Positions 46,705 through 63,272 of a DNA stretch of 64,000 nt are shown one piece after another. Under the pieces are notes generated by a model. The model had not been told where the DNA came from, made no database searches, and was given only the letters and a program-made list of their open reading frames with translations. The position numbers and the translations under genes are program-made. The stretch lies in NCBI GenBank assembly GCA_037442505.1, contig JBBIPZ010000011.1, forward strand, positions 14,781 through 78,780. The letters are read 5' to 3'. How positions within the stretch are numbered: position 1 is the first letter of the stretch; every line of letters starts with the position of its first letter. Source of the DNA: JBBIPZ01 sp037442505 [NCBI: Deltaproteobacteria bacterium]. GTDB lineage: Bacteria > CALINM01.

Positions 46705-48417
46705 TTAATCTAAAATGCAAAAATCTTTCAGCACAAAATCCCATTTTTTATAACCATTATAACTACTCATTTTTGGCAAACCAACAATATCTAAATAACT
46801 ACCTAGCTTTAAAGCATCGTTAAACATAGAAAAGCCAATTCCACTAAAAATTTTCCCATCTTTGCTCAACTGAAGTTTCATGTGATTTTCTTTTTGTCCC
46901 ACTGGTCTTAAATGTTCTACTTTTACTTCTGAAATTAAAAAAGTTGGTTCTGGATTTCCCTTCCCAAAAGGTTCTAATAATGCAAGTTGTTCAAAAAAAA
47001 GTTCGTCTATCTCGCTTACATCTAAAACTGTATCAATTTTACAATAGTTATAAACATCACCGTTTAGCAGATACCTTTTTGCCAACTCGTTTATCGATAT
47101 CTCAAAATCTTTTAAGAATTCCTTCCTTAATGATAATCCACATGCCATATCATGCCCCCCAAAACTTAAAAGATTATGAGATATTTCACCTATAACCTCC
47201 GTTAAAGGGAAGCCCGGCACACTCCTGCCAGAACCTTTAATTATCCCTTCCTCCTCATCACAGCATATGAAAAACGGCTTGTTGTACCTTTCTAATAGCT
47301 TTGACGCTACTATTCCCAATACACCCGGATGCCACTGAGGGGAATATAACACATACACAAGAGATTCATTCCCACCGTCAATCATCTTGAGCGCATCTTT
47401 TATCATCTTCTCTTCCTCTTTTTGTCGGCGATTGTTTTCATTATTCAAAGTACGCACCAGTTCTTTCGCTGTTTCCTCATTGTCAGAAATTAAGAGTTCG
47501 AAGGCATGTTTTGGGTTACTCATTCTACCGGGGGCATTAAGTCTTGGTGTAATCCTGAAGGTAATCAAGCGAGTGTCCAAATTTTCAATATTTAGCTCTT
47601 TTAATAATGAGCGCACTCCTACTTTATTACTGTTTTTAATTTCTTCGATACCATACTTAACAAAAACACGGTTGGGCCCAAGAATAGGCACCATATCTGA
47701 TATTGTTCCTATGGCAACGAGGTCTAAATACTCTCTAAGATTAGGCTCTTTATTTTTAGTAAAAAATCCAGCTTCTCTTAAAACTTTTCTAAGTTTAATC
47801 AAAAAATAAAACGCAACACCTACACCTGACATTTCTTTAAAAGGAAAGTTGCTATCTTCTCGCTTTGGATTTATAACAGCATAAGCTGGTGGCAATCTTT
47901 TAGGCACATTATGATGATCTGTTATTATAAAATCAATCCCGAGGTTGTTGCCATATTCGACAAGCTCGTAGTCACTGATACCACAATCTACCGTCATTAT
48001 AATATCAACGCCATTTCTCTTAAAATCATCGATAGCTTTTTTGTTAAGGCTATATCCATCCTCAAACCTGTCTGGTAAATAATACAAAACATCTGCCCCA
48101 ATCTTTTTTAAAAACAAATACATAACTGCACAAGCTGTAACCCCATCGGCATCATAGTCACCATAAATCGCAATTTTTTCTTTATTGAAAATCGCTTTTG
48201 CTACTCTCTCCGCGCCTTTTTTAAGGTCCTTTAGCATAGATGGGACTGGCAGAGTATTCAAGGAGGGCCTTAAAAAATCGTTTATTTCGGTTTCAGACTT
48301 TAACCCCCTTGAAATTACGATTCTTGCAATTGCATCCTTAAAATTGAAAACCTTTTTAATGTGATTAACTAAACTTTCATCACATTTATTTACAATCCAG
48401 CTATTTGCCTTTTTCAT
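46705..48417 (-). CDS. recJ: Single-stranded-DNA-specific exonuclease RecJ
   Basis: RecJ degrades ssDNA 5'-3' in recombination and mismatch repair. The protein (about 570 aa) has the DHH motifs: YGDYDADGVTACAV, TVDCGISDYE and IITDHHNVPKRLPPAYAVINP, and a DHHA1 C-terminus with SFGGHDMACGLSL. ATG 48417 overlaps the upstream glycosyltransferase-like gene by 17 bp; in-frame starts up to 21 bp further upstream are possible. It leads into polA. Confidence 0.93.
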   Translation of the reverse strand: MKKANSWIVNKCDESLVNHIKKVFNFKDAIARIVISRGLKSETEINDFLRPSLNTLPVPSMLKDLKKGAERVAKAIFNKEKIAIYGDYDADGVTACAVMYLFLKKIGADVLYYLPDRFEDGYSLNKKAIDDFKRNGVDIIMTVDCGISDYELVEYGNNLGIDFIITDHHNVPKRLPPAYAVINPKREDSNFPFKEMSGVGVAFYFLIKLRKVLREAGFFTKNKEPNLREYLDLVAIGTISDMVPILGPNRVFVKYGIEEIKNSNKVGVRSLLKELNIENLDTRLITFRITPRLNAPGRMSNPKHAFELLISDNEETAKELVRTLNNENNRRQKEEEKMIKDALKMIDGGNESLVYVLYSPQWHPGVLGIVASKLLERYNKPFFICCDEEEGIIKGSGRSVPGFPLTEVIGEISHNLLSFGGHDMACGLSLRKEFLKDFEISINELAKRYLLNGDVYNYCKIDTVLDVSEIDELFFEQLALLEPFGKGNPEPTFLISEVKVEHLRPVGQKENHMKLQLSKDGKIFSGIGFSMFNDALKLGSYLDIVGLPKMSSYNGYKKWDFVLKDFCILD

Positions 48418-49996
48418 TTTCACCATTCTTACAGGCATATACTGCTACTACAGCAGTGCTATCATAGTAGATTGGATATATTTTATCGGAAAGTTTTGAA
48501 TTTTTGAAATTCTGGCAATAGGGATTAATAAGAAATTTTAGGTCCTTGTAATATCTTGTAATTGAAAACTCATTCACAATAAAGTAACGATTTGGGGATT
48601 TACAAACAAGCTCAACTAATTCCTCTTCACTCAAATTTCTACTGACATTTTCAAATTTCATATCACCAGCATAGTAAGCTATAAGATAATTAGTTGAGGT
48701 GCTTATAAGAGTGGCATCCTCTGGTACATGTGCCTTTAGCCATTCCCCGGTTTTTTTATATAATCTTTCTTGCTCAAAGATTTCGTTTAGCTCTCCATAT
48801 TTTTCAAACCTCTCGTAAATCTTATAATATCCCCAAGAGGTGAACAACAAAAACGCTACCAAATATATAAAAAATTTAGCAATAACAGCTTTAGTATCAA
48901 GTTTAAACATTTTATACACGCCAAATAAACCTATCCCAAAATAAACTAATATAACAGAAGTCGTTGGAGAAAGATACCTTTCATCAACTTTAAATATGAG
49001 TGGAGCAGCAAAGGGCAATATCATTGAAATAAAAAATATAAATGACTTCCAGCCTAATTTTGAACTATTTAATGTGTAAACAAAAAAAATAGTTGAAAGT
49101 AGCAGTAGAATTCCAAAAAAATAATTATAGTCTGAAAATATCCAGACAGCATTTGACAAGTTTTTATTAAGGAAACTATAAGTTTTTGATAAATCATATG
49201 TAAATGTGGCAAAAAAACCCTGTCCTACATCAGGAATTCCCATAATATTTTTTATATGCCAGAGTATTTCTGATGATTTACCTGAAAAAACAAACTTTCC
49301 CTTCATTTCTTTTAGAAAGATTAAATATGGACTGATCGTAAGTACAAAACATATGAGATTAACAACTAACCACTTAAGCTTATGTATTATTTCAACCCCG
49401 CCAACTATAAAACAGAAAAATGTCAAAGCTAAGTAAATCAAAATCCCTTCTGGCCGACCAAGATATATAAGTCCACCGCAAATACCAGATATCAAAGCAA
49501 AGTTAAGTGTGTATTTTCCTTTGAGTATTTCTGAAATCAAGTATGCGTAGAGAAAAAATACAAATATATAAGTGGTTTCAGACATAACCTGTACATTGAC
49601 AAAAGCTATCTGAGGATGGAATGCATAAAGCAATATAGAGAAAAATGCAGCTTCCTTGTTTAAAATGTTTTTTACCAGTAGATATATGGGAAATACTGTT
49701 GCAGCACCAAAAATAATATTGATTATGCTACCAATTTCATCAAGTGGTAAAGGTAAAAAAGAAAATATCGCAATAATCGCTGGCAAAAGAGGTGTCCAAT
49801 TAATCATTTCTGTTACAAAAACACCTTTAGTCATATTTTTTGCTATCTTCACATACTGATAACCATCATAGTCTGGAACCATCAAGAGATGATATGTGTT
49901 TGTGTAAAATCTGAAAACCAACGCTGCCAAAAAAACAAGAAAAACAAAAATTTCCGTGTAATAAACTGTAAAAAACTTCTTTGCTCCTCTATTCAT
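48401..49996 (-). CDS. Polytopic GT-C/GT39-type glycosyltransferase-like membrane protein
   Basis: A 531-aa membrane protein with about ten to eleven hydrophobic segments. The DYDGYQYVKIAKNMTKG loop after TM1 holds an acidic motif like the catalytic Asp of GT-C mannosyl/arabinosyl transferases (PMT/ArnT). These use lipid-linked sugars on the periplasmic side. The soluble C-terminus (about 390-520) has WLKAHVPEDATLISTSTNYL. It overlaps the methyltransferase stop by 8 bp and belongs to the glycan cluster. Donor and acceptor are unknown. Confidence 0.75.
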   Translation of the reverse strand: MNRGAKKFFTVYYTEIFVFLVFLAALVFRFYTNTYHLLMVPDYDGYQYVKIAKNMTKGVFVTEMINWTPLLPAIIAIFSFLPLPLDEIGSIINIIFGAATVFPIYLLVKNILNKEAAFFSILLYAFHPQIAFVNVQVMSETTYIFVFFLYAYLISEILKGKYTLNFALISGICGGLIYLGRPEGILIYLALTFFCFIVGGVEIIHKLKWLVVNLICFVLTISPYLIFLKEMKGKFVFSGKSSEILWHIKNIMGIPDVGQGFFATFTYDLSKTYSFLNKNLSNAVWIFSDYNYFFGILLLLSTIFFVYTLNSSKLGWKSFIFFISMILPFAAPLIFKVDERYLSPTTSVILVYFGIGLFGVYKMFKLDTKAVIAKFFIYLVAFLLFTSWGYYKIYERFEKYGELNEIFEQERLYKKTGEWLKAHVPEDATLISTSTNYLIAYYAGDMKFENVSRNLSEEELVELVCKSPNRYFIVNEFSITRYYKDLKFLINPYCQNFKNSKLSDKIYPIYYDSTAVVAVYACKNGENEKGK

Positions 49997-50891
49997 AAAG
50001 CAACCTCGCTAAAATAGTCGTTTGACTTGCATAATATGGAACAGGAATATTTTTTATTAAATCTGGCAAAATTTTTTTTAACGTTGATGCAAACGGCACC
50101 TTATATCTAATCGCCATGTCAACCAAATACCCAAAATCAAGGGTTTGCCAATAAGGCTTGAATAAAAATAGTTTGTAACCCGTTTTTTCGCAAATTTTAG
50201 TGATAGATTTGTGATCAAAATGATGTAAGTGAACTGACAAAATCCACCAGAACCTCTTTCCACTTAACTTTGCCATCCATGTCCCTATATCTGGATAGTT
50301 AATCAACAATATTCCATTATGTTTGAGAAGCCGTTTAATTTTAAATAATGCATCTTTTGGCTCAACAAGATGCTCTATTACATCCCACAAACACACCATA
50401 TCAAAATATCTATCAGGAAAAGGATTTTCATCTATCGTACCCTGTGTAATATTTAAACCTCTCTTTTTACCTTCTTCAGACAGATATAAAGATGGTTCTA
50501 ATCCGTGAGCATCATATCCAAACTTTGCTGCCGCCTCTAAAAAAGCTCCACCAGCAGTACCGATATCAAGAACTTTAGCACCTTCCGCCGGCAAATGTTC
50601 TTTTATCTTGTTTAATGCATTGTAAAAGCTTTTAACCCTGTTTTTATATTGACTGTCGTGTAGTGATTGCTCTGTATTGATATAACCTCTTAAAATAACT
50701 TCCTTAGGGTAACGTGGATTCTCATAAATCATTCCACAAACATTACATCTTACAATCCTTTGAGTACCTTGTAATCCTGTGGCAGCACCATAAAGTTTTA
50801 TAGGGTCATCTTCCTTAACCCATGGCTCAAAAATAACTTTATAACTATCACTGTCACATACTGGACAAACTACCTCTATTTTTTCCGTCAT
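49989..50891 (-). CDS. SAM-dependent methyltransferase with N-terminal zinc ribbon
   Basis: A class I methyltransferase of 300 aa. The N-terminus holds two CxxC pairs (VVCPVCDSD and VRCNVCGMIYENPRY), a ribbon found in several sugar or natural-product methyltransferases. SAM-binding motif I is AKVLDIGTAGGAFLEAAAKFG, then DMVCLWDVIEHLVEPKDAL. The context, GT2 upstream and GT-C downstream, suggests methylation of a glycan sugar, but the substrate is unknown. Confidence 0.85.
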   Translation of the reverse strand: MTEKIEVVCPVCDSDSYKVIFEPWVKEDDPIKLYGAATGLQGTQRIVRCNVCGMIYENPRYPKEVILRGYINTEQSLHDSQYKNRVKSFYNALNKIKEHLPAEGAKVLDIGTAGGAFLEAAAKFGYDAHGLEPSLYLSEEGKKRGLNITQGTIDENPFPDRYFDMVCLWDVIEHLVEPKDALFKIKRLLKHNGILLINYPDIGTWMAKLSGKRFWWILSVHLHHFDHKSITKICEKTGYKLFLFKPYWQTLDFGYLVDMAIRYKVPFASTLKKILPDLIKNIPVPYYASQTTILARLLYE

Positions 50892-50911: not shown

Positions 50912-52120
50912 CTAATCTCTGTAAGATATAGTGCCTTCTGTACCTAAATTAAACCGTATTTCATCAAGAAATGTGTTCAATACAAAATAACTAAAAAATG
51001 TTTGTATAGCAAAAAATGTTAGCAGACAACCTGTTATAAACAACCTGAAGTTATTTGGATCACCCGAAAAGTCTACAAAAGCCCACTTGAGAAATGTAAC
51101 AACGATAAAATAAGCACCTAAAATAAATAAAATTAGACTAAAGATCGCACCGTTTTCAGTTTTAAATAAAGATGAGTTTAGAAAAAATTTAAGTTTGTTA
51201 TCAATAAAATTAAGACGATGGTAAAAAATATAAACCCTCATAAAGATTGCAAACCATACTAACTGCGTACCAATCAGTATCATAAAAGAACTGCCAACAA
51301 GAGATAAGTTACCCAGACCAATGCTACCCAACCAGATAAGACTATGTTCACCACCAATTAATAAAGGCAAAAACACTAATATTCCCGATATTGTCAATAT
51401 CGTTCCGGGAATAAGAAAAAGATATCTTGCTGAAAACATAAACATCAATTTAAAGTTATTCCACGCTGCCTTCCAAGGATTAAGATGTGGTTTTCTACCT
51501 TCCATATCTTTGTGCAATGTTATGTCAATTTCTTTAATCTTTAGTCCCACCAGCCCAGCTTTGATAACCATCTCTGAAGCATACTCCCAACCCGGGCTCT
51601 TTAAATTCATCTTTTCGTATGCTTCTTTTGTGAATGCCCTCATCCCACAATTACAATCAGATATATTGGTTTTAAAAAGTCTGTTTACAACCCAGGTCAT
51701 TATCGGCGTGCCAATATATCTATGCAGCCAGGGCATAGCACCTTTTTCGATAGTATCATTTAATCTGTTACCCATAACAAGGTCTGCTTCACCATTTTTT
51801 ATTGGCATGATAAATTTTTCCAATTCATTAAAATCATAGGTATTATCAGCATCACCGATAATAATAATTTTACCTTTAGCCTCTTTAATCCCTTTATGAT
51901 AAGCGTTGCCATATCCTTTTAAAGGCTGATAAACCACCCTTGCACCTTTGGACGTAGCAATTTCAACAGTTTTATCTTTTGAATACGAATCAGAAATTAT
52001 AACTTCACCTTTTATACATAATCTTTTCAATGTGTTAACGGCCTTTTCTACACAATAACCTATTGTTATCTCTTCGTTTAACGTTGGGATTACTACAGAA
52101 ACTTCTATTTCTTCATCCAT
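50912..52120 (-). CDS. GT2 family glycosyltransferase (polyprenyl-phosphate type) with C-terminal membrane segments
   Basis: The protein (about 402 aa) has an N-terminal GT-A domain: VSVVIPTLNEEITIGYCVEKA, DSYSKDKTVEI and IIIIGDADNTYDFNELEKF (metal-binding DAD-like region). These resemble dolichyl/undecaprenyl-phosphate sugar transferases. A C-terminal part (about 235-390) has about four hydrophobic helices. It probably loads a lipid carrier with a sugar for the neighbouring GT-C proteins. Start ATG 52120 lies 7 nt from AAAGG; a TTG two codons earlier is less likely. Confidence 0.87.
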   Translation of the reverse strand: MDEEIEVSVVIPTLNEEITIGYCVEKAVNTLKRLCIKGEVIISDSYSKDKTVEIATSKGARVVYQPLKGYGNAYHKGIKEAKGKIIIIGDADNTYDFNELEKFIMPIKNGEADLVMGNRLNDTIEKGAMPWLHRYIGTPIMTWVVNRLFKTNISDCNCGMRAFTKEAYEKMNLKSPGWEYASEMVIKAGLVGLKIKEIDITLHKDMEGRKPHLNPWKAAWNNFKLMFMFSARYLFLIPGTILTISGILVFLPLLIGGEHSLIWLGSIGLGNLSLVGSSFMILIGTQLVWFAIFMRVYIFYHRLNFIDNKLKFFLNSSLFKTENGAIFSLILFILGAYFIVVTFLKWAFVDFSGDPNNFRLFITGCLLTFFAIQTFFSYFVLNTFLDEIRFNLGTEGTISYRD

Positions 52121-52174
52121 ACACAATCCTTTAAAGTGTTTTGTTTAAGAAGCATTATTAATGAGTAGCTATTT

Positions 52175-52807
52175 TTAATCTTCTTCATCGCCACTAATTA
52201 TTTTTTCTATAAACGGAAAATCAACATTTTTAGGGATCAGTCTCATAATTATATGGCTAATTATGAGATGGATATCCTCAGAGATCTGCATATCTTTGAT
52301 ATTCGCATTTACAGTATGTTTGGCAATTTTTTTTAGCTTACCACCGTCATAACCTGTTATTCCTACTGTTATTGCACCAATTTTATTTGCATACTCGATA
52401 GCACGAATTATATTTTCTGAATTACCGCTTCCAGATATTCCAATGACAACATCCCTTTTTTCTACAAAATTTTTCAATTGTTCAACAAAAATTTCTTCGT
52501 AACCATAATCATTTGCTATGGCAAGCATCGTAGGTATGTTGTCATTTAAACAAATAACTTTGAATTTTAATGGTAAATAAGCGTTAACCCCCTTATTTAT
52601 ATCAACTGCAAAATGTGACGCAGTTGCTGCACTTCCGCCATTGCCCAATACAAAAATATTATTCTTCCTATAGTAACATTCTAAAAGAATATTGTAGAAT
52701 TTTTCAATTTCATCTAAAGAAAGATTAGCAACCGTTTCAATAAGCTTTGAAATATATTCTTTAATTTGTATTTTTATTTGTTCTTTTTTAATATTAATCA
52801 TATTCAT
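52175..52807 (-). CDS. gmhA: SIS-domain phosphoheptose isomerase
   Basis: GmhA converts sedoheptulose-7-phosphate to D-glycero-D-manno-heptose-7-phosphate. The 210-aa protein has the SIS signature VLGNGGSAATASHFAVDINKG, FVEKRDVVIGISGSGNSENI and a C-terminal His-rich helix (DIHLIISHIIMRLI). The adjacent GHMP kinase and fused nucleotidyltransferase/phosphatase support a heptose role rather than another SIS function. GGAG precedes ATG at 52807. Confidence 0.92.
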   Translation of the reverse strand: MNMINIKKEQIKIQIKEYISKLIETVANLSLDEIEKFYNILLECYYRKNNIFVLGNGGSAATASHFAVDINKGVNAYLPLKFKVICLNDNIPTMLAIANDYGYEEIFVEQLKNFVEKRDVVIGISGSGNSENIIRAIEYANKIGAITVGITGYDGGKLKKIAKHTVNANIKDMQISEDIHLIISHIIMRLIPKNVDFPFIEKIISGDEED

Positions 52808-52821
52808 ACATTGCTCCTTAT

Positions 52822-53799
52822 TTATTCATAGTAAATTAGAGCTGTCCCCTGTGTTTCAAATTTAAATGTTAGTCTGTATAAATTTTTCAATGCAAAAATG
52901 ACATCTTTTTGTCTGTCTTTTTTTACATAAAATAACAAAAATCCCCCACCACCTGCACCTAAAAGCTTGCCACCTATAGCACCGTTTCTAATAGCAAGTT
53001 CATAATACTCATCAATTCTGCTATTTGTTATATTGCTTGCTAACTCTCTTTTATATAACCAGTTTTGATGAAGTATCTCACCAAGGGCATCTATATTACC
53101 TCGCATAAATTCTCTTTTAAGATCAAAGGTTAAAGATACGATTTTGTGCATAAACTCAACTTTTTTTTCATCATTTTTAACGTTTGTTTTTTGCTCTAAA
53201 AGTATTTCAGATGCACTTCTTGTCTCACCTGTATAAAAGATTAGCAGGTTGTTTTGAAGTTCTTCATAATTTTCTCGATTTAAAAAGATCTTTTCAACAG
53301 AAACCGTATCATCTTTGTTAAATGTAATAAAATTTAACCCACCAAAGGCAGAAGCATATTGATCCTGCTTTCCAATAGGCTCCTTTAACCTATCAATCTC
53401 AATTTTACATGCATATTCAGCAATCTCTGCTTTGGTCATATATTTACCTGTGTAGATATTGCAAAGATTTACTAATCCGACAGTAAACGCAGAAGATGAA
53501 CCAAGGCCTGTGCCAGCAGGTATATCTGCGCTTGAGTTGAAATCTACTCCCTTAATTTTATAATCTTTAAAAACTTCACGGATTATAGGATGTTTTATAC
53601 TATCAACACTGTCAGCTTCTTCGTGACGCATATACTTTAATAAGTATCCTTTCCGAAAAAAGTAAGGATGCATGGAAAGATAAATATACTTGTTTATTGT
53701 GGTACTTAAAACTGCTCCACCATAAAGAGAGTAATATTCCCTTATATCACTTCCTCCACCACAAAAACTTATCCTGAAAGGTGTCTTAACAATTATCAT
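52822..53799 (-). CDS. hddA: D-glycero-D-manno-heptose 7-phosphate kinase (GHMP family)
   Basis: HddA phosphorylates heptose-7-phosphate at C1 on the alpha-anomer route to GDP-heptose. The 325-aa GHMP kinase has ITPFRISF-like VKTPFRISFCGGGSDIREYY, the ATP loop SADIPAGTGLGSSSAFTVG and C-terminal GAIGGKLLGAGGGGFLLFY. It overlaps the three-domain protein by 14 bp and precedes gmhA. A fucokinase-like relative is possible, but context favours heptose. Confidence 0.88.
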   Translation of the reverse strand: MIIVKTPFRISFCGGGSDIREYYSLYGGAVLSTTINKYIYLSMHPYFFRKGYLLKYMRHEEADSVDSIKHPIIREVFKDYKIKGVDFNSSADIPAGTGLGSSSAFTVGLVNLCNIYTGKYMTKAEIAEYACKIEIDRLKEPIGKQDQYASAFGGLNFITFNKDDTVSVEKIFLNRENYEELQNNLLIFYTGETRSASEILLEQKTNVKNDEKKVEFMHKIVSLTFDLKREFMRGNIDALGEILHQNWLYKRELASNITNSRIDEYYELAIRNGAIGGKLLGAGGGGFLLFYVKKDRQKDVIFALKNLYRLTFKFETQGTALIYYE

Positions 53800-55681
53800 T
53801 GTCTTTGTCCTCTATTATCAGGTCAGCATATTTTTTGTAACTATTTATAACTTCATACTCGTCAACTTTTCTCTTTTGAAAAATCTTCACAATTTCATCA
53901 TCCAACAAGCCTTTCCATTTATAAAACTTTGTTATGCGCTGGTAAAGCAAAGCTTCGTTAATATCGCAGAATATCTTATAACGACTATATTTTAATAAGC
54001 TCTCAACTGATAAAGCAACAACTCCTTCAAAAATTAGTATATTCGCATTTCCTATAAAGTATTTTATTTTACCCCTACTATATCCTCTAAGTAATTGAGA
54101 ATACTTGTTAATATAAACTGCTCTTCCATCAAGTATATTTTTACAATCTATATTTAGTTTATCCAGCTGATATCTTTGAAAAACATTCATTTCCCCTGCT
54201 CTTTTTTCTAACGGCAACAACCAGTTATCAAGATGGACCACTTTTGTTTTAAAGCCTTCCTCATTTAGTTTTTTTTCTAAATATTTTGATAAGGTTGTTT
54301 TTCCACTTCTCGTATTTCCTCCAATGGTAATTATAAACGGCTTTTTTTTAATATTTCTAACTCTTTCTATTAATAGTTTACAGTAAGCTTTATAAGGCTC
54401 ATTGATTATAAAATTTACTGCATCTAAAAGTTCGTCAAATACAAAATCTGGTTTTACCTTAAGATTCTTGCACCCATTTCCAGTTCTAACTCCAATCGTC
54501 GTCAACCCAATAGCTTTACCACACTTAATATCTCTCTCACTATCACCAATGATATAGGAACCTTTTAAATTGATGTTTAAATCTTTTACTGCTTGTTTTA
54601 TCAAGCCTGGCTTTGGCTTTCTGCAATCACAAACAATCTTAAATTCAGGATTTTCATCAGGGAACCCTTTATCGGGATGGTGAGGACAAAAGTAAATGCC
54701 ATCTAAGTATGCTCCATCTTTACCAAGTAAGGTTTCCATCTTTTTGTGTATCGCTTCCAGTTCATTCAAGGTGCAAAGGTTTCTCGCAACAACTGGTTGG
54801 TTTGTAATCACTACTGACAGGTAGTTAGACCTGTTAATACGTTTTATAGCCTTGCTTACATTAGGCAAAAGCCTGAAGTCTTCGATTTTATGCAATAAAT
54901 TTACCTCTTCGTTTATCACTCCATCTCTATCAAGAAAGATAGCATTTTTTTTATTTTTAAAGTTAAAAAAAACTATTCTGCCCTTGTCAAAGTCTAAATT
55001 TACTTCATCAAGCCTCGCCCTGGTACCAATATCTTTGATATATTCAGTCGTTTTATAACCAGCGAGTTTTTCACCTTTTTTTAACAGGTCAGGAAAAATA
55101 TCACTGCCAAAGTCAGTTTTAACACCAAAGGTAATATAATTAAATATCCTTCTCGAGCATACATACACAGCAGCATTGACGATATTTTTATAAAATACAT
55201 CTGCTTTATGAGGTTTGGGATGAAATGCTGTGATGCAACCATCTTTATCAAGTTCAAGAAGATCGCTATCATAAGGATGGTCATTAGGGTGTACAACCAA
55301 TGTGGCTATAGCTTTTTTCTTTTTATGATAAGTTAACAGCCTATCGATATCAATATCAAGCATCAAATCGCCATAAAAAACTAAAAAATCATTTTCTTTT
55401 ATGAAATGCTCTAACAATTTTAAACTTCCAGCAGTTCCCAATGGGTACGGCTCAATTACGTGACTAATTTTTACACCAAATTCTGCGCCATCTTTAAAAT
55501 AGTCAAAAATTTTATTTGCAAAATGCCCTGACAAAATGAAAACATCTTTTATACCGTAGCGTTTTGCAAGCTCAATTTGATGAAGCAAAAGAGGTTTCCC
55601 ACCAACTTCAACCATTGGCTTTGGTATGTCTGTAAGACCCAATCTTGTCCCTTTTCCACCAGCAAGGATAACAAGTTTCAT
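53786..55681 (-). CDS. Three-domain heptose protein: nucleotidyltransferase + HAD phosphatase + P-loop kinase-like
   Basis: A 631-aa fusion. Residues 1-235 are a nucleotidyltransferase (LAGGKGTRLGLTDIPKPMVEV) like HddC. Residues about 245-415 are a GmhB-type HAD-IIIA phosphatase: FLDRDGVINE (Asp251, Asp253), VVITNQPVVAR and CDCRKPKPGLI. Residues about 445-625 form a P-loop domain with Walker A GGNTRSGKTT (454-463) and LHLDNW-like VVHLDNWLLP, akin to uridine-kinase-type enzymes. The first two would convert heptose-1,7-bisphosphate to NDP-heptose. The role of the third is unknown. It overlaps hddA by 14 bp and the epimerase by 4 bp. Confidence 0.88.
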   Translation of the reverse strand: MKLVILAGGKGTRLGLTDIPKPMVEVGGKPLLLHQIELAKRYGIKDVFILSGHFANKIFDYFKDGAEFGVKISHVIEPYPLGTAGSLKLLEHFIKENDFLVFYGDLMLDIDIDRLLTYHKKKKAIATLVVHPNDHPYDSDLLELDKDGCITAFHPKPHKADVFYKNIVNAAVYVCSRRIFNYITFGVKTDFGSDIFPDLLKKGEKLAGYKTTEYIKDIGTRARLDEVNLDFDKGRIVFFNFKNKKNAIFLDRDGVINEEVNLLHKIEDFRLLPNVSKAIKRINRSNYLSVVITNQPVVARNLCTLNELEAIHKKMETLLGKDGAYLDGIYFCPHHPDKGFPDENPEFKIVCDCRKPKPGLIKQAVKDLNINLKGSYIIGDSERDIKCGKAIGLTTIGVRTGNGCKNLKVKPDFVFDELLDAVNFIINEPYKAYCKLLIERVRNIKKKPFIITIGGNTRSGKTTLSKYLEKKLNEEGFKTKVVHLDNWLLPLEKRAGEMNVFQRYQLDKLNIDCKNILDGRAVYINKYSQLLRGYSRGKIKYFIGNANILIFEGVVALSVESLLKYSRYKIFCDINEALLYQRITKFYKWKGLLDDEIVKIFQKRKVDEYEVINSYKKYADLIIEDKDNDNC

Positions 55682-56619
55682 TCTTTCTTCCCCAAAATTG
55701 CTTTAACTGCATATCTAACTGCTTCGTCTGAGCTTATTTTAGCTCTCCATCCTAAGGAATGAACCTTTTTAAGACTGTAATTGAATTCAGGAACATCACC
55801 AATCCATCCCCTATCGCCACCTGTAAAAATAAACTGTGGTGTCAATCCCATTTCTTCACAAACTATCTTTGCTATATCCTTTACTTTTGTTCGTGAATCT
55901 ACACCAACATTAAAATAATTAATCTTGTCATTACTTTTTTCCCATATATAAATTATTGCATCAACAAGATCTTTAACATACAGATAAGGTTTGTTCTGGT
56001 TGCCATCACCAAGTATTTCAAGCTTTTTAGGGTTCTTTTTTAATTTATTTATGAAATCAAAAATGACTCCATGCGTTGCCCTTTCGCCAACAACATTGGG
56101 AAATCTTATTATCCATGCTTTAAAACCGTAATTTTCAGTATAACTGGAGATAAAAGCTTCGCTGGCTAATTTAGCAGCGCCATAATGGGATACAGGAAAA
56201 AGCGGACCAAAATCTTCTGCAATTTTTTCTCTTGTTTCGCCATAAATAGCAGATGTTGATGCAAAAACAATATTTCTAACATTATGCTTTCTCATAGACT
56301 CAAGCACAGAGTAGGTAGTTAAAAATGTGTTTTTAAGATCAATCTCCGGGCTATCATGACTTTTTGATATGTCAGAGTTTGCTGCCATATGAAAGACAAC
56401 ATCTAACTTATACTTTTCAAAAATCTCGCTCAATTGTTTCTGTTCAAGTAAGTCGCATTTAAAGAATACAAAACTATTTTTTTTCAAATTATGAGCTATA
56501 TTTTCGAGCCTGCCCAAGCATAAATTATCTACTGCAACAACAAAATGCCCCTTTCCCAATAATGAATCAACTAAATGACTGCCTATAAAACCCGCTCCAC
56601 CTGTGACTAAAATCTTCAT
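55678..56619 (-). CDS. NAD-dependent nucleotide-sugar epimerase/dehydratase
   Basis: A 313-aa extended SDR like UDP-glucose 4-epimerase: VTGGAGFIGSHLVDSLLGKG binds NAD, FHMAANSDISKSHDSPE marks the family, Ser in FASTSAIYG, and SHYGAAKLASEAF has the YxxxK motif intact (unlike the SDR at 4977). It lies between the three-domain heptose protein and the GT-C gene, so it probably edits a sugar nucleotide for the same glycan. Its substrate cannot be read from the sequence. Confidence 0.9.
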   Translation of the reverse strand: MKILVTGGAGFIGSHLVDSLLGKGHFVVAVDNLCLGRLENIAHNLKKNSFVFFKCDLLEQKQLSEIFEKYKLDVVFHMAANSDISKSHDSPEIDLKNTFLTTYSVLESMRKHNVRNIVFASTSAIYGETREKIAEDFGPLFPVSHYGAAKLASEAFISSYTENYGFKAWIIRFPNVVGERATHGVIFDFINKLKKNPKKLEILGDGNQNKPYLYVKDLVDAIIYIWEKSNDKINYFNVGVDSRTKVKDIAKIVCEEMGLTPQFIFTGGDRGWIGDVPEFNYSLKKVHSLGWRAKISSDEAVRYAVKAILGKKE

Positions 56620-58196
56620 TTATTCACCTTTATAAGATAAAATTCAAGGTAATTTGGTGTTACTATTCGCTTCACAAGTTTGAATTTGTTGTCTTTAATA
56701 ATTCCTTTTATTCGCCAGAAAATTTCGTTGTATAAATCTGTTCTCATATCCATTTCAGCAGGTCCAAGCATAATATAATCAACCTTTTGTTTATCCAATA
56801 CATCAAGAAACTCATTCCAGCTAACATCGGGGAAAGAAACATACTCTCCTTTTGCGTACCATGCACCAATGTTAAATCTTGTCATAATTTTGGAATTTAT
56901 AGGAATAAGATGAGATACTTCTCTTCCAAAATCACGGTAACCAGTGTAAATTATGCCTTGTATATCAAATTGTTGTTTTTTCTCCACGAAATATGGTTTT
57001 AATTTATTATGAAGAACATTATTGTAGGCAGTTAAAAATAAAATTAAACCATAAATGTAAAGGTAAGACTTTTTTTTCAAGTTTTTTTCTGATAACATCC
57101 TTAAGCTTTCTACACCACACCCAGCAAGAACAAAAACAAAAGGTGCGTAAGGAGCAAAATAATTTTCCACAACAAAGAAAAACGGAATGATTAATAAAAC
57201 ATACAAATATGGCAAAAAAAACAGATACTTATTTAAGGCAATAGTACCAAAACCAAATATCATTAAAAATAAAGGCAAAATTGCTAAAAATAAAGGCAGA
57301 TAACCATAATATTCAGGGAAGTTTTTGATAGCTGCAAAAACTTTTTCTGGATATATCTTTATCGCCATTTTCAACAATTCCTCTTTAGGAATTTCAGCTT
57401 TACCATAGTTATATTTTTCATAATCCATATTATAGCTAACTATTACCGCTGCTCTAATTTGTGTGTACAATTTATTAGTAAACTTTAAATCACCTGTTTT
57501 TAATCGTAACGCATATACATAAGGAGAGGCAACAACAAGAAAAGAAATCACAAAAATAGACAATCCTATTAAAATCCTTTTCTTTTCCACCTTGTTCTTA
57601 AGCCACAAAACAATAAATAGCAATAAATTTCCAGCAAATATACCAATTCCTTCAGCCCTTGATAGATAGGCAAAACTTAAAAATACTCCCGAAAAAGCGG
57701 CATATATTAATTTGAAATTTTTATAAAACAGAACAACAAAAAGCATTGACATAAGTAACATAAACGAGTAAACAGTCTGAGCCTGAACAATCCCTGACCA
57801 TTTTACTAAAAGAGGAAATGTAGCAGTCATAAATCCTGAAATAAAGCCAGCCTGTTTTGAAAAAATCTTTTCACCAATAAAATAAGCAGGAATTACTGCA
57901 GCAACTCCAAATAAATAACTAACAATTCTACCAGCCAATTCAGGATTAATACCAAACATAGCTAAAGGAGAAGCTATAAAAGAATAAAAGGGATGAAATG
58001 CTGTAAAAATGTAGTCATCTAAAAAGGTTCCATCTGCAAAATGTTTTATTAAAAATGCATATGAAGTTTCATCCAGCCCCATCAAACTGATTTGGGGAAA
58101 AGGCCTTAGCAAAGAAGCTATAACTACCAGTATAAATAAACTTAATAAATTTTTATTAATCAGGTAGAGAAAATTCAGTCTGTTTAAACCAATCAT
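56616..58196 (-). CDS. Polytopic GT-C/GT39-type glycosyltransferase-like membrane protein
   Basis: The 526-aa protein has about ten hydrophobic helices. The first periplasmic loop has an acidic motif, SLMGLDETSYAFLIKHFADG, like ArnT/PMT enzymes. The soluble tail (about 420-526) includes GYRDFGREVSHLIPINSKIM. It is a paralog-like partner of the 48401-49996 protein at the other end of the cluster. Its ATG follows the mqnE TAA directly, so glycan genes appear coupled to menaquinone genes. Function is inferred. Confidence 0.75.
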   Translation of the reverse strand: MIGLNRLNFLYLINKNLLSLFILVVIASLLRPFPQISLMGLDETSYAFLIKHFADGTFLDDYIFTAFHPFYSFIASPLAMFGINPELAGRIVSYLFGVAAVIPAYFIGEKIFSKQAGFISGFMTATFPLLVKWSGIVQAQTVYSFMLLMSMLFVVLFYKNFKLIYAAFSGVFLSFAYLSRAEGIGIFAGNLLLFIVLWLKNKVEKKRILIGLSIFVISFLVVASPYVYALRLKTGDLKFTNKLYTQIRAAVIVSYNMDYEKYNYGKAEIPKEELLKMAIKIYPEKVFAAIKNFPEYYGYLPLFLAILPLFLMIFGFGTIALNKYLFFLPYLYVLLIIPFFFVVENYFAPYAPFVFVLAGCGVESLRMLSEKNLKKKSYLYIYGLILFLTAYNNVLHNKLKPYFVEKKQQFDIQGIIYTGYRDFGREVSHLIPINSKIMTRFNIGAWYAKGEYVSFPDVSWNEFLDVLDKQKVDYIMLGPAEMDMRTDLYNEIFWRIKGIIKDNKFKLVKRIVTPNYLEFYLIKVNK

Positions 58197-59291
58197 TTAA
58201 TACACTCTTAACTCGTTATATACAGTGTCGCGCTCTACCGGGAACTTCTTAGCCTCTTTAATCATTGTGATCAGCTCTTCTTTTGTAAGAGCCTCTCTCG
58301 TCTTTGCACCTGCTGAATGGGTTATTTTTTCCTCAACAACTGTGCCATCCAGGTCATTTACACCAAAAAACAGAGATATCTGGGCAACCTTCTCTGTTAG
58401 CATTATCCAGAAGGCTTTTATATGCTGGAAATTATCAAGGTATAGTCTTCCTATCGCCAATGTCTTTAAATCATCAAAGCCTGTGGTATATCGTCTCTTT
58501 TCTATTTTTGTGTTTTCTGGATGGAAGGCAAGGGGAATAAAGGCTTGAAAACCACCTGTTTTATCCTGAAGCCTTCTTAGTCTTTCCATATGGTCAACCC
58601 TGTGCCAGTACTCTTCTATGTGTCCATAAAGCATTGTGGCATTTGATTTTAATCCCACTTTATGAGCCTTCTCCATCACCTCAAGCCATCTATCGCCAGA
58701 AATCTTTTCAGGGCAGATCTTCTCTCTTATTTCGGGATGAAATATTTCTGCACCACCACCCGGTAAAGAGCCCAAACCGGCATCTTTTAGTGTTTTTAAA
58801 ACATACTCGAGAGATTTCTCAGAAATTTTAGAGAAATAATCAATCTCTACAGCAGTAAATGCCTGGATATGCATGGAAGGATAAGCATCTTTAAGTTTTT
58901 TTACCATTTGAACATAAAAATCAAATCCCCAGCGGGGATGGAGTCCACCCACAATATGTAGCTCTGTAGCTCCCTGTTTACATGCTTCTTCTGCCTTTTT
59001 TAGCATCTCTTCCATTGTAAGCTCATAGGAGTCTTTATCTTCTTTATCCCTTGAAAAGGCACAGAATTTACATCTGTTAACACAAATATTTGTAGGATTA
59101 ATATGTCTGTTAACATTAAAGTAAACCTTATCGTCATTTTTCTTCTTATTGACATAATCTGCAAGTTCTCCAACTGTCAATAAATCCTTTGTCTCGAATA
59201 AAAACAGCCCTTCCTCAAAGCTAATTCTTTCTCCAGCATATATCTTCTCTTTAATTTTCTCCATCGTAATGTTTTTACTGCTGTCTTTCAA
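58197..59291 (-). CDS. mqnE: Aminofutalosine synthase (menaquinone biosynthesis, radical SAM)
   Basis: MqnE adds an adenosyl group to enolpyruvyl-benzoate, forming aminofutalosine in the futalosine route to menaquinone. The protein (about 364 aa) has the radical SAM triad CVNRCKFCAFSRD (CxxxCxxC), VGGLHPRWGFDFYVQM and SLPGGGAEIFHPEIR. YVNKKKNDDKVYFNVNRHINP is typical. Start choice: TTG 59291, 7 nt from GGGGG; ATG 59264 is another option. It overlaps the small zinc-ribbon gene. MqnC is similar, but the sequence and the UbiA/UbiD/UbiX partners fit MqnE. Confidence 0.93.
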   Translation of the reverse strand: MKDSSKNITMEKIKEKIYAGERISFEEGLFLFETKDLLTVGELADYVNKKKNDDKVYFNVNRHINPTNICVNRCKFCAFSRDKEDKDSYELTMEEMLKKAEEACKQGATELHIVGGLHPRWGFDFYVQMVKKLKDAYPSMHIQAFTAVEIDYFSKISEKSLEYVLKTLKDAGLGSLPGGGAEIFHPEIREKICPEKISGDRWLEVMEKAHKVGLKSNATMLYGHIEEYWHRVDHMERLRRLQDKTGGFQAFIPLAFHPENTKIEKRRYTTGFDDLKTLAIGRLYLDNFQHIKAFWIMLTEKVAQISLFFGVNDLDGTVVEEKITHSAGAKTREALTKEELITMIKEAKKFPVERDTVYNELRVY

Positions 59292-59529
59292 TTTTTTTCC
59301 CCCTTTCAAACTCTATATCATTACTGCCACACCAGGCACAATTAACTATCGAAAATTCTATATCTCCATCGGCGACAGAAATTTCTTCTCCTCTTAATGC
59401 TTCGTCTTCCGGCTCCCCCACTATACCATAAATAGCGTTGTTTTCATCCAATTCCAGTTCAAGAATCTTTCTAATATTACACCACACATTAAAATTTGTT
59501 GTGTTGCCACATTTTCTACATTTAGCCAT
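59275..59529 (-). CDS. Small zinc-ribbon protein in the menaquinone cluster
   Basis: An 84-aa protein starting MAKCRKCGNTTNF, with ATG 59529 overlapping the ubiX stop by 8 bp and a GGTGGGG Shine-Dalgarno. Two Cys pairs (CRKCGN, and CAWCGSNDIEF near residue 65) look like a zinc ribbon. The middle is acidic (DENNAIYGIVGEPEDEA). I do not recognise a characterised family. Its location, wedged between ubiX and mqnE with overlaps at both ends, hints at a link to menaquinone synthesis or respiration. Confidence 0.72.
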   Translation of the reverse strand: MAKCRKCGNTTNFNVWCNIRKILELELDENNAIYGIVGEPEDEALRGEEISVADGDIEFSIVNCAWCGSNDIEFERGKKIERQQ

Positions 59530-60091
59530 TTTTTGAACCCCACCTATGAGCAGGCTCATAATCTACAAAAAGAAGCTTTATTATCCTTTCAGAAAAGCTT
59601 TCTACAAGCTCTTCAATACTTGCTGGTTTTAAATAAAAAAATGGAGACAAAGGCATGATGATCCCCCCAGCCTTTGCAATCTTTAACATATTTTCTAAAT
59701 GAATGAGGTTGTAAGGGCTTTCTCTAACAGCTAACAAAATCTTCCTTCGCTCCTTTAGTGCCACATCTGCTGCCCTTTCTAACAAGTTCCCAGATATACC
59801 TGACGCCAGTCTACCTACAAACCCCATTGAAGCTGGACAAATTAAAACGTCAAAACAATTACTGCCACTTGCTACAGGAGAGAAAAAGTTATTTTCATCT
59901 TCAAGTGTGATATTATTAAATTGCTTAACAAATTCAGAAAGCTCTATTCCTGTCTCTTCTTTAAAAATCTGTTTTCCATTTTTTGAGGCTATTAGAAATA
60001 CTTCAATTTCCTTCTTTGAAAGCCTTTCAAGAATACTTTTTGCATAGGGCATTCCAGAAGCACCTGTTATACCAAAGACCAATCTTTTCAT
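59522..60091 (-). CDS. ubiX: UbiX-like flavin prenyltransferase
   Basis: UbiX makes prenylated FMN, the cofactor of UbiD decarboxylases. The 189-aa flavoprotein has LVFGITGASGMPYAKSILE, the CPASMGFVGRLASGISGNLLERAADVALKERRK block and RESPYNLIHLENMLKIAKAGG. MPLSPFFYLKP is typical. It overlaps ubiA by 1 bp. In futalosine organisms this gene set serves the last decarboxylation of the naphthoquinone ring. Confidence 0.94.
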   Translation of the reverse strand: MKRLVFGITGASGMPYAKSILERLSKKEIEVFLIASKNGKQIFKEETGIELSEFVKQFNNITLEDENNFFSPVASGSNCFDVLICPASMGFVGRLASGISGNLLERAADVALKERRKILLAVRESPYNLIHLENMLKIAKAGGIIMPLSPFFYLKPASIEELVESFSERIIKLLFVDYEPAHRWGSKNG

Positions 60092-60966
60092 TATCCCTTC
60101 CAGTAGATATCTAAAACTGTGAAAGTAAAATAGATGACGCTAATATAGCCATTCATATTAAAAAAGGCTATATCCAATTTTGACAGATCATTCTCTTTCA
60201 CAAGACTATGCTCATAAATTAATAGAATAGCTATTACAATAAGTCCGGTTATATAGAAAAATCCAAAACCACCTGAAAAATAAAGCAACAATAAAAGCGA
60301 AACCATTATAAAATGAAAAACTCTTGAAATAATGATAGACTTTTTTATTCCAACCATGACAGGGATTGAGTAGAGACATTCTTTTTTATCAAATTCATAA
60401 TCCTGAAGTGCATAAAGGATATCAAATCCTGCGACCCAAAAAAGAACCGCAAAACTTAAAATTAGTGGCAAAACATCTATACTTCCTTTAATAGCAATCC
60501 AGGCACCCAATGGCGCACCGGACAAAGCAAGCCCCAAAACTATGTGGGATAGTGAGGTAAATCTCTTGGTAAGAGAATATCCACAAAGGATGATTATAGC
60601 CACAGGTGATAAATAAAAACAAAGCTGATTAAGCTTGTGGGCTGAGTGTATAAGAAGTATAAACGATATCAGGGTATAAAAAATTACTGCCTCTTTAGAT
60701 ATCAAGCCTTTGGGAAGTGGTCTATCCTTGGTTCTTGGATTTTTTGCATCAATTTGCATATCCACAAGCCTATTGAAAGACATAGCCCCAGTCCTCGCGC
60801 CAACCATAGCCATTATAATCCAAAAAAGATGATACTTTGATGGCACTCCATTGCTGGCAATAAAAGCGCTTGTAAGGGCAAATGGAAGGGCAAAAATTGT
60901 ATGAGGGAATTTTATCATCTCGAGAAAGATTTTAAATCTTTGCAAAGAGCTATAAACTGATGCCAT
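60091..60966 (-). CDS. UbiA-family prenyltransferase (menaquinone, MqnP-like)
   Basis: An integral membrane prenyltransferase of about 291 aa that attaches the isoprenoid tail to the quinone ring precursor. About eight to nine hydrophobic helices are present. The first Asp-rich motif is FNRLVDMQIDAKNPRTKDRPLP; the second is FDILYALQDYEFDKKE. I start at ATG 60966, where GGAA lies 6 nt upstream; an in-frame start 18 bp earlier overlaps ubiD more. Neighbours make a 1,4-dihydroxy-6-naphthoate substrate likely. Confidence 0.9.
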   Translation of the reverse strand: MASVYSSLQRFKIFLEMIKFPHTIFALPFALTSAFIASNGVPSKYHLFWIIMAMVGARTGAMSFNRLVDMQIDAKNPRTKDRPLPKGLISKEAVIFYTLISFILLIHSAHKLNQLCFYLSPVAIIILCGYSLTKRFTSLSHIVLGLALSGAPLGAWIAIKGSIDVLPLILSFAVLFWVAGFDILYALQDYEFDKKECLYSIPVMVGIKKSIIISRVFHFIMVSLLLLLYFSGGFGFFYITGLIVIAILLIYEHSLVKENDLSKLDIAFFNMNGYISVIYFTFTVLDIYWKG

Positions 60967-62786: not shown

Positions 62787-63272
62787 ATGGCTAAAGATAA
62801 GATAATAAAAATAAATGACGTTGAAAAAATTACTGCTTTGCTGAAAATGCAAGGTAAAAAAATTATTTTTACCAATGGATGTTTTGATATAATTCATCCC
62901 GGACATGTTATTTATCTATCAGAAGCAAAAAAACTGGGAGATGTTTTATTCATAGGACTGAATAGTGATGTATCTGTAAAACGATTAAAAGGCGAACAAA
63001 GACCTATTCTAAACGAAAACGAGCGAGCAACAATATTGTCATTTTTAGAAATGGTGGATTATGTATGCATTTTTGATGAAGACACCCCTTACGAATTGAT
63101 AAAACTTGTTAAACCTGACGTCCTTGTCAAAGGTGGAGATTGGAGTATCGAAAATATTGTTGGTAAAGATATAGTAGAAAGTTACGGTGGAAAGGTCATT
63201 AACATCCCTTACCTTGACGGTAAAAGCACAACAGGAATAATAGAAAGGATAAAAAAAATTTATGGAGCTTGA
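62787..63272 (+). CDS. rfaE2: D-glycero-beta-D-manno-heptose 1-phosphate adenylyltransferase (HldE C-terminal type)
   Basis: It makes ADP-D-glycero-D-manno-heptose for LPS inner core. The 161-aa protein equals only the C-terminal half of E. coli HldE; the kinase half is absent. The nucleotidyltransferase motif is FTNGCFDIIHPGHVIYLSEAK, with GLNSDVSVKRLKGEQRPI and DVLVKGGDWSIENIVGKD following. It overlaps the exonuclease gene by 11 bp. This ADP-route enzyme coexists with an HddA/HddC-like alpha-anomer set at 52-56 kb. Confidence 0.93.
   Translation: MAKDKIIKINDVEKITALLKMQGKKIIFTNGCFDIIHPGHVIYLSEAKKLGDVLFIGLNSDVSVKRLKGEQRPILNENERATILSFLEMVDYVCIFDEDTPYELIKLVKPDVLVKGGDWSIENIVGKDIVESYGGKVINIPYLDGKSTTGIIERIKKIYGA

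What the first reader, a model, noticed from the sequence alone, without database searches (positions are those of the whole stretch)
53786..55681. Heptose nucleotidyltransferase-phosphatase fused to a P-loop kinase-like domain
HddC-like and GmhB-like domains in one chain make sense as successive steps. The additional C-terminal domain with Walker A GNTRSGKTT and uridine-kinase-like sequence has no place in the known GDP-heptose pathway. It might phosphorylate an upstream sugar, recycle a nucleoside, or make an unusual heptose derivative.
Basis: partly seen in the sequence, partly recalled or inferred. Interest (0 to 1): 0.6.

Follow-up and report, generated by a model that had tools for sequence, protein, structure and literature searches.

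The report
Heptose-sugar enzyme with extra kinase domain
One bacterial protein joins two likely steps for making an activated seven-carbon sugar to a third, uncharacterised kinase domain; the same three-part protein already sits unremarked in many root-nodule bacteria, so it is real and modestly interesting rather than unique.

Summary
A 631-residue ORF on the minus strand (53786-55681) joins an HddC-like sugar nucleotidyltransferase (about 1-240), a GmhB-like heptose-bisphosphate 7-phosphatase (about 245-430) and a P-loop kinase of the phosphoribulokinase/uridine-kinase superfamily (about 445-627). It lies in an operon-like run with an epimerase-type enzyme, HddA-like kinase, GmhA-like isomerase and polyprenyl-type glycosyltransferases.

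The fusion is not unique: 54 plasmid records cover at least 80% of it (30 listed: 29 Rhizobium, 1 Methylovirgula), mostly annotated "HAD-IIIA family hydrolase", with the same kind of neighbours where I looked. Related cassettes in Elusimicrobia and Bacillota have only the first two domains, so the kinase looks like an accessory module.

The kinase is probably active (P-loop and catalytic Asp kept; dN/dS 0.23 in rhizobia) but is not a uridine kinase: the nucleoside-binding NFDHP segment is gone and DxYY has become DxW[LI].

Best reading: a GDP-heptose-forming 7-phosphatase/nucleotidyltransferase with an add-on small-sugar kinase, most likely phosphorylating the primary (C7) hydroxyl of a free heptose or heptulose. 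No substrate is shown. The structure prediction failed (pLDDT 39). Eight searches of an open-access library showed no paper on the architecture.

The parts
53786..55681 (-). 631-aa three-domain protein: nucleotidyltransferase + HAD phosphatase + P-loop kinase
   Evidence: same architecture in Rhizobium and Methylovirgula
54962..55681 (-). domain 1 (residues 1-240): HddC-like sugar-1-phosphate nucleotidyltransferase; AGGKGTR signature; Glu of the guanine-binding motif (EPYPLGTAG)
   Evidence: PF00483 4-230; motif check against PMC6981941
54392..54961 (-). domain 2 (residues 241-430): GmhB-like HAD-IIIA heptose-bisphosphate 7-phosphatase; FLDRDGVIN, TN motif, CPHHP...CDCRKP zinc site, GDSERD
53789..54391 (-). 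linker and domain 3 (residues 431-631): PRK/uridine-kinase superfamily P-loop kinase; Walker A GNTRSGKTT, LDNW catalytic Asp motif, FEG, R..DE motif
   Evidence: PF00485, PDB profile match to uridine kinases E 8.6e-18, residue comparison
55678..56619 (-). NAD-dependent SDR epimerase-type enzyme (GGAGFIG, STSAIYG, YGAAK), overlaps the three-domain gene by 4 nt; 42-58% identical partners beside five relatives
52822..53799 (-). GHMP kinase, HddA-like (heptose-7-phosphate 1-kinase), overlaps the three-domain gene by 14 nt
   Evidence: PF00288/PF08544; NF049969 HddA 177 bits; 44-46% identical in Methylovirgula and Rhizobium
52175..52807 (-). SIS isomerase, GmhA-like (sedoheptulose-7-phosphate isomerase)
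50912..52126 (-). GT2 glycosyltransferase of the polyprenyl/dolichyl-phosphate type (AglJ-like); 43% identical gene in the Rhizobium cluster
49989..50891 (-). class I methyltransferase
48401..49996 (-). PMT_2-type membrane glycosyltransferase
56616..58196 (-). PMT_2-type membrane glycosyltransferase, overlaps the epimerase gene by 4 nt

Best explanation
[quoted passage not shown] The GmhB-like domain removes the 7-phosphate from the heptose 1,7-bisphosphate made by the neighbouring HddA-like kinase, and the HddC-like domain joins the resulting 1-phosphate to GTP. A neighbouring epimerase then probably alters the sugar, and a polyprenyl-phosphate glycosyltransferase with PMT-type membrane transferases puts it on a surface glycan. 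The third domain is an accessory, probably active small-molecule kinase of the phosphoribulokinase/uridine-kinase superfamily that is no longer a nucleoside kinase. The most likely job, which is inferred, is to phosphorylate the primary (C7) hydroxyl of a free heptose or heptulose so that recovered or imported sugar can enter the same pathway at the 7-phosphate. Shown: the domain order, intact signature motifs, conserved gene neighbourhood, loss of nucleoside-binding residues, purifying selection in rhizobia, and absence of the kinase from otherwise similar cassettes. Inferred: every substrate, the use of GTP, the fate of the sugar, and the salvage role.
For: Domain matches. Signature motifs of the nucleotidyltransferase and phosphatase domains are intact, including the Glu that binds guanine in HddC (PMC6981941, abstract and passages). 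Run of overlapping or closely spaced genes with GmhA-, HddA-like and epimerase genes. Cassette conserved in Rhizobium (epimerase 50%, HddA-like 46%, GT2 43%, isomerase 33% over 139 residues) and Methylovirgula (epimerase 42%, HddA-like 44%, isomerase 44%). Kinase: P-loop and catalytic Asp invariant, NFDHP and both Tyr of DxYY lost in all three lineages; dN/dS 0.229 over 36 pairs of 9 rhizobial genes; the fused kinases form one group in a tree, support 92/89. Accessory nature: three Elusimicrobia loci (L086, L087, L089) have the 52-58% identical epimerase beside a two-domain protein with no kinase, two (L087, L088) have the 48-61% identical HddA-like gene, and 0 of 340 genomes of that phylum gave a three-domain match. 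Superfamily members act on primary hydroxyls of small metabolites (recalled knowledge).
Against: No substrate evidence of any kind. The first domain scores higher with other nucleotidyltransferase models (mannose-1-phosphate guanylyltransferase 144 bits, MurU 98, glucose-1-phosphate cytidylyltransferase 95) than with HddC (86), and its best solved match is a UTP-glucose-1-phosphate uridylyltransferase, so HddC rests on context and the Glu. That Glu is an Asp in Methylovirgula. Curated cut-offs for HddC, GmhB, HddA and uridine kinase are all missed. The kinase evolves about twice as fast as the other two domains in rhizobia (0.229 against 0.107 and 0.092) and is only 24-27% identical to the window's in the other two lineages; the Methylovirgula kinase finds only itself among plasmids at E 0.001. 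Substrates may therefore differ between lineages. A 7-kinase fused to a 7-phosphatase risks a futile cycle unless the phosphatase insists on the bisphosphate. The tree join of the fused kinases has long branches and is not starred.
Confidence: 0.45

Rival explanations
1. The kinase acts after activation: it phosphorylates GDP-heptose, or the epimerised GDP-sugar, at a free hydroxyl, so that a phosphorylated heptose is put on the glycan.
For: The kinase is fused to the last step, not the first; it sits directly beside an epimerase that probably works on the nucleotide sugar; the accessory, patchy distribution fits a decoration step.
Against: The same epimerase occurs without the kinase in three Elusimicrobia loci. 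No member of the PRK/uridine-kinase superfamily that I can recall phosphorylates a nucleotide sugar (recalled knowledge).
Confidence: 0.2
2. The kinase phosphorylates some other small metabolite that decorates the same glycan or feeds it (for instance a glycerate- or fructose-like acceptor).
For: A profile of the fused kinases also matches phosphoribulokinases (2.8e-11), pantothenate kinases (5.5e-8) and a chain named fructokinase, 3c8u (1.6e-7); in the tree they lie near E. coli coaA and yggC with weak support and long branches.
Against: Uridine kinases still match best (8.6e-18); I saw no annotated gene in the Rhizobium and Methylovirgula neighbourhoods that points to such a metabolite.
Confidence: 0.15
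3. Nucleoside or nucleotide recycling: the domain is a uridine/guanosine-type kinase that helps supply GTP.
For: The closest named profiles and solved chains are uridine kinases.
Against: The NFDHP nucleoside segment, both Tyr of DxYY and a conserved His are lost in all three lineages; scores are 27-53 bits against cut-offs of 180-220 for uridine kinase; GTP regeneration would need a nucleoside diphosphate kinase (recalled knowledge).
Confidence: 0.1
4. The third domain is a regulatory or scaffolding remnant that binds ATP without turnover.
For: It is the fastest-evolving of the three domains in rhizobia and is missing from close relatives.
Against: Walker A (G..RSGK[ST]T), the catalytic Asp and further charged residues are invariant across three distant lineages, and in 9 of 9 rhizobial genes read the Walker A is intact.
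Confidence: 0.1

Closest known systems
Rhizobium leguminosarum / etli plasmid-borne 'HAD-IIIA family hydrolase' (649 aa, e.g. WP_086083152.1)
   Same: Same three domains over 99% of the length and same kind of neighbours: isomerase, GT2, epimerase, HddA-like kinase
   Different: About 34% identical overall and 27% in the kinase; the two Rhizobium clusters read add two oxidoreductases and a flippase/LPG-synthase-like protein; no function given in the records
Methylovirgula sp. HY1 plasmid protein WP_255565199.1
   Same: Same three domains, 41% identical; epimerase, GmhA-like and HddA-like genes close by
   Different: Kinase only 24% identical; guanine Glu replaced by Asp
Two-domain nucleotidyltransferase-GmhB fusions of Elusimicrobia, Bacillota and human-gut contigs
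   Same: Same first two domains, beside HddA-like and/or GmhA-like genes in several
   Different: End where the kinase would begin; no kinase relative at E 0.0001 or 0.001 in the stretches fetched, many of them short
[quoted passage not shown]
   Same: GXGXR signature and guanine-binding Glu (PMC6981941, abstract and passages)
   Different: No phosphatase or kinase part is described in the passages read; window scores 86 bits against a curated 300
GmhB (heptose-1,7-bisphosphate 7-phosphatase; PDB 2gmw, 3l8e)
   Same: HAD-IIIA motifs and zinc site; E 1.2e-30 to 2gmw
   Different: Separate gene in E. coli; window just under the curated cut-off (168.9 of 178)
Uridine kinase (Udk; PDB 3asy)
   Same: P-loop kinase of the same superfamily by profile, catalytic Asp kept
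   Different: Nucleoside-binding motifs lost

Membership tests
HddC (heptose-1-phosphate guanylyltransferase) | GXGXR nucleotide-binding signature | tested here: met
   AGGKGTR in the window protein
HddC (heptose-1-phosphate guanylyltransferase) | Glu of the EXXPLGTGGA guanine motif | tested here: met
   Window EPYPLGTAGS has the Glu, with Ala for Gly and Ser for Ala later in the motif; Rhizobium has Glu, Methylovirgula Asp
HddC (heptose-1-phosphate guanylyltransferase) | NCBIfam NF049965 curated cut-off (300 bits) | tested here: not met
   86 bits over residues 1-191; several other nucleotidyltransferase models score higher
HddC (heptose-1-phosphate guanylyltransferase) | Enzyme activity with heptose 1-phosphate and GTP | not testable with these tools
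   needs assay
GmhB (heptose-1,7-bisphosphate 7-phosphatase) | HAD motifs DxD, T, K, GD and the zinc site CxH...CxC | tested here: met
   FLDRDGVIN 249, TNQPVVAR 293, CPHHP...CDCRKP 332, GDSERD 379; the roles of these motifs are recalled
GmhB (heptose-1,7-bisphosphate 7-phosphatase) | Curated cut-offs NF006506 (178) and TIGR00213 (149.6) | tested here: not met
   168.9 and 129.3 bits, both short
PRK/uridine-kinase superfamily (PF00485) | Pfam gathering score (22 bits) | tested here: met
   41.8 bits in the whole protein, 46.9 alone; Methylovirgula 29.3, Rhizobium 40.5
PRK/uridine-kinase superfamily (PF00485) | Kinase fold in a structure model | tested here: inconclusive
   single-sequence AlphaFold2 model, mean pLDDT 38.9
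Uridine kinase (Udk) | NFDHP nucleoside-binding segment and DxYY | tested here: not met
   lost in window, Methylovirgula and Rhizobium, compared with E. coli udk and 15 uridine-kinase-like frames picked by motif
Uridine kinase (Udk) | TIGR00235 cut-off 220 bits | tested here: not met
   53.4 bits
HddA (neighbouring gene 52822-53799) | GHMP N and C domains | tested here: met
   PF00288, PF08544
HddA (neighbouring gene 52822-53799) | NF049969 cut-off 600 bits | tested here: not met
   177 bits over nearly the whole length; best of the models listed

The most novel reading that the evidence does not exclude
The third domain belongs to a new kinase subfamily that phosphorylates a heptose, either free (a salvage route into GDP-heptose) or already activated (giving phosphoheptose glycans), carried as an exchangeable module of one trifunctional enzyme in rhizobial plasmids and an unplaced bacterium.
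Probability: 0.4. Interest if true: 0.5.

Novelty: new variant of a known kind. Interest (0 to 1): 0.33.

Why it matters
If the kinase acts on a heptose, there is an undescribed entry or exit in the GDP-heptose pathway, and it sits on plasmids of legume symbionts where the records name it only as a hydrolase. If it acts on something else, the fusion would point to a second component of an uncharacterised surface glycan. The gene can be taken from culturable rhizobia, so ordinary enzyme assays can settle the question.

Tried and rejected
Rejected: chance or frame artefact (same fusion elsewhere). Rejected: uridine kinase proper. Rejected as main reading: the fused kinase replaces HddA, because an HddA-like gene lies beside or close by in all three lineages. 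Considered and set aside: it replaces the ADP-heptose kinase HldA for the window's separate adenylyltransferase at 62787-63272; the superfamily is not known to phosphorylate anomeric hydroxyls and rhizobial LPS is not known for ADP-heptose (both recalled).

Led nowhere: viral-contig scans with the whole protein and with the kinase alignment (no relative) and with the three-domain alignment (one phosphatase-only locus); phage records (83 records with a match, 0 covering 80%; the best are two-domain genes); the genome-contig scan (9 loci, all matching only the nucleotidyltransferase); placing the window's organism (no genome held; best PolA segment 41-49% identical in each of 12 genomes tried). 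The kinase profile A2 at E 1e-9 rang in 56 of 247 and 165 of 296 genomes, with scores up to 66.5 bits; those that I opened look like ordinary uridine kinases or other long-frame kinases (six loci, of which two gave no frame by my pattern, one of them found; rows drawn from 18 loci and 8, partly the same). Long-frame hits such as G175 (677 aa), G491, G381 and G485 were not identified, so searches are weak evidence of absence. In some searches at most 3 to 6 candidates per genome were scored, so a miss is possible there too. A kinase-profile hit 13 kb from a two-domain gene in G635 (7.6e-6) is a protein with two P-loops that looks like CysN/CysC with an APS kinase (read by eye), not a relative; the region was fetched and not studied further.

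Rows dropped: only 6 of 9 rhizobial genes were picked up by my pattern; one search repeats it with all 9. In one search, 15 of 18 loci tried gave a uridine-kinase row, plus E. coli udk. In one search, 6 of 8 'other' loci gave a row. Paper searches listed only part of their hits (15 of 25; 15 of 27; 15 of 41; 10 of 197; 10 of 429).
Full report
WHAT IS THERE. The stretch 53786-55681 holds, on the minus strand, one open frame of 631 residues with an ATG start; the plus strand of the same stretch is broken by many stops. Pfam finds a nucleotidyltransferase at 4-230 (112 bits), a HAD-type hydrolase (best stretch 353-421, 59 bits) and a phosphoribulokinase/uridine-kinase domain at 450-624 (41.8 bits, cut-off 22). 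NCBIfam places GmhB-type heptose-bisphosphate phosphatase models at 245-427 (best E 7.8e-50) and many sugar-1-phosphate nucleotidyltransferases at the N-terminus; HddC is among them (86 bits) but not the best (mannose-1-phosphate guanylyltransferase, 144 bits). In solved structures the phosphatase matches a GmhB-type chain, 2gmw, at 1.2e-30, and the first domain's best match is a UTP-glucose-1-phosphate uridylyltransferase.

NEIGHBOURHOOD. The genes around it are on the same strand and closely packed: a PMT_2 membrane transferase, an NAD-dependent epimerase-type enzyme (overlap 4 nt with the three-domain gene), the three-domain gene, an HddA-like GHMP kinase (overlap 14 nt), a GmhA-like isomerase, a GT2 of the polyprenyl/dolichyl-phosphate type, a methyltransferase and a second PMT_2 transferase. 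[quoted passage not shown] That pathway, as described there, has no further kinase.

THE ARCHITECTURE IS NOT UNIQUE. A tblastn of the whole protein against 72,556 plasmid records gives 548 records with a match, of which 54 cover at least 80% of it; the 30 best, which were listed, cover 97-99% and are 29 Rhizobium and one Methylovirgula. The kinase domain alone finds 55 records, all Rhizobium, at E 1e-5 or better; the Methylovirgula kinase is too far off for that search and itself finds only its own record at E 0.001, but it matches PF00485 at 29.3 bits. Most records call the protein 'HAD-IIIA family hydrolase'. The neighbours are conserved: epimerase 50%, GHMP kinase 46%, GT2 43% and isomerase 33% (over 139 residues) identical in Rhizobium; epimerase 42%, GHMP kinase 44% and isomerase 44% in Methylovirgula. 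No phage record covers 80% of the protein (0 of 83 with a match).

THE KINASE LOOKS LIKE AN ADD-ON. In genomes reached through Elusimicrobia, Clostridium, Bacillus and Ignavibacteriae loci, no three-domain form appeared among matches at E 1e-60 or better. In the phylum of the Elusimicrobia seed 5 of 340 genomes matched, four with two domains and one with the nucleotidyltransferase alone (one search gave the same five from 294). In the phylum of the Clostridium seed 5 of 299 matched, one at a contig end, and, started from the Bacillus seed, 4 of 199 did, the same genomes. In the class of the Ignavibacteriae seed 1 of 197 matched, and there the two domains are two frames. In the Elusimicrobia loci L086, L087 and L089 the two-domain gene sits beside an epimerase 52-58% identical to the window's, and in L087 and L088 beside a GHMP kinase 48-61% identical: the cassette is close to the window's, yet the protein ends where the kinase would start. 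No kinase match at E 0.001 was found in those four genomes (G118, G130, G135, G973). On a tree of the first two domains (16 rows) the three-domain form needs 3 changes, and well-supported branches force at least 2, while the fused kinase domains themselves group together with support 92/89, not starred and on long branches. The simplest account is one fusion that was lost or passed on more than once; this is inference.

IS THE KINASE ACTIVE, AND ON WHAT? Compared with E. coli udk and 15 uridine-kinase-like frames picked by motif, the P-loop GK[ST]T residues, the catalytic Asp (Asp47 in E. coli udk numbering), one Tyr (Tyr95) and the Gly of the [DE]G motif are kept; the NFDHP nucleoside segment, both Tyr of DxYY and a conserved His are gone; DxW[LI] is new in all three lineages. 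The roles given to these residues are recalled. No curated kinase model comes near its cut-off (best 53 of 220 bits). A profile of four fused kinases matches uridine kinases (8.6e-18), phosphoribulokinases (2.8e-11), pantothenate kinases (5.5e-8) and a chain named fructokinase (1.6e-7): superfamily membership is safe, the subfamily looks its own. In nine rhizobial genes dN/dS is 0.107, 0.092 and 0.229 for the three domains (36 non-independent pairs): the kinase is under purifying selection, though less strictly. The structure prediction failed for lack of an alignment (mean pLDDT 38.9) and was not searched further.

MECHANISM. The first two domains most likely convert heptose 1,7-bisphosphate to GDP-heptose. 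The HAD and zinc residues are intact, and the Glu that binds guanine in Yersinia HddC (PMC6981941, abstract and passages) is present in EPYPLGTAG; Rhizobium keeps it, Methylovirgula has Asp. For the kinase, known members of the superfamily phosphorylate primary hydroxyls of small free metabolites (recalled). The substrate nearest at hand with such a group is a heptose or heptulose at C7, which would give heptose 7-phosphate or sedoheptulose 7-phosphate, the normal entry of the pathway. Joining a salvage kinase to a sugar-nucleotide synthase has a parallel in the bifunctional fucokinase/fucose-1-phosphate guanylyltransferase, whose model also matches the neighbouring GHMP kinase (98 bits). This is inference; phosphorylation of the activated sugar is the main rival.

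LITERATURE. Eight paper searches (two of them with no hit) gave no title or shown abstract describing this architecture; the listings were partial for large result sets, and subscription journals are mostly missing. Two papers were read in passages only; of the others I saw the search listing.

VERDICT. Real, already present in many rhizobial plasmids, uncharacterised in what I could search; a new variant of a known kind, with one open and easily tested question.

Noticed in passing
62787-63272 (+): A stand-alone beta-heptose-1-phosphate adenylyltransferase (RfaE domain II, 212 bits over a cut-off of 181.5), so the same genome probably also makes ADP-heptose; the GmhB-like domain of the fusion might serve both pathways.
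   Followed up: partly
58197-62395 (-): Menaquinone genes of the futalosine route (MqnE above cut-off, UbiX, UbiA-like prenyltransferase, menaquinone decarboxylase) just upstream of the heptose gene run.
   Followed up: no
20883-21917 (-): A 344-aa protein with a small Arf/Ras-type GTPase domain (PF00025, 33 bits), in a run with an EF-G gene and a GAF-GGDEF protein; MglA-like genes of this kind go with motility or polarity (recalled).
   Followed up: no
L001:8884-9058: The annotated start of the Methylovirgula protein WP_255565199.1 looks too late: the frame runs on upstream to MRQAVVLAGGKGTR, which supplies the missing nucleotide-binding signature.
   Followed up: yes
L002 and L003, 12913-15656: The two Rhizobium versions of the cassette that were read carry two extra oxidoreductases (an epimerase-type and an FAD/GMC-type protein) directly after the GHMP kinase; their role is unexplained.
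   Followed up: no
40950-42842 (-): A SelB selenocysteine elongation factor (350 bits over a cut-off of 242) suggests that the organism makes selenoproteins.
   Followed up: no
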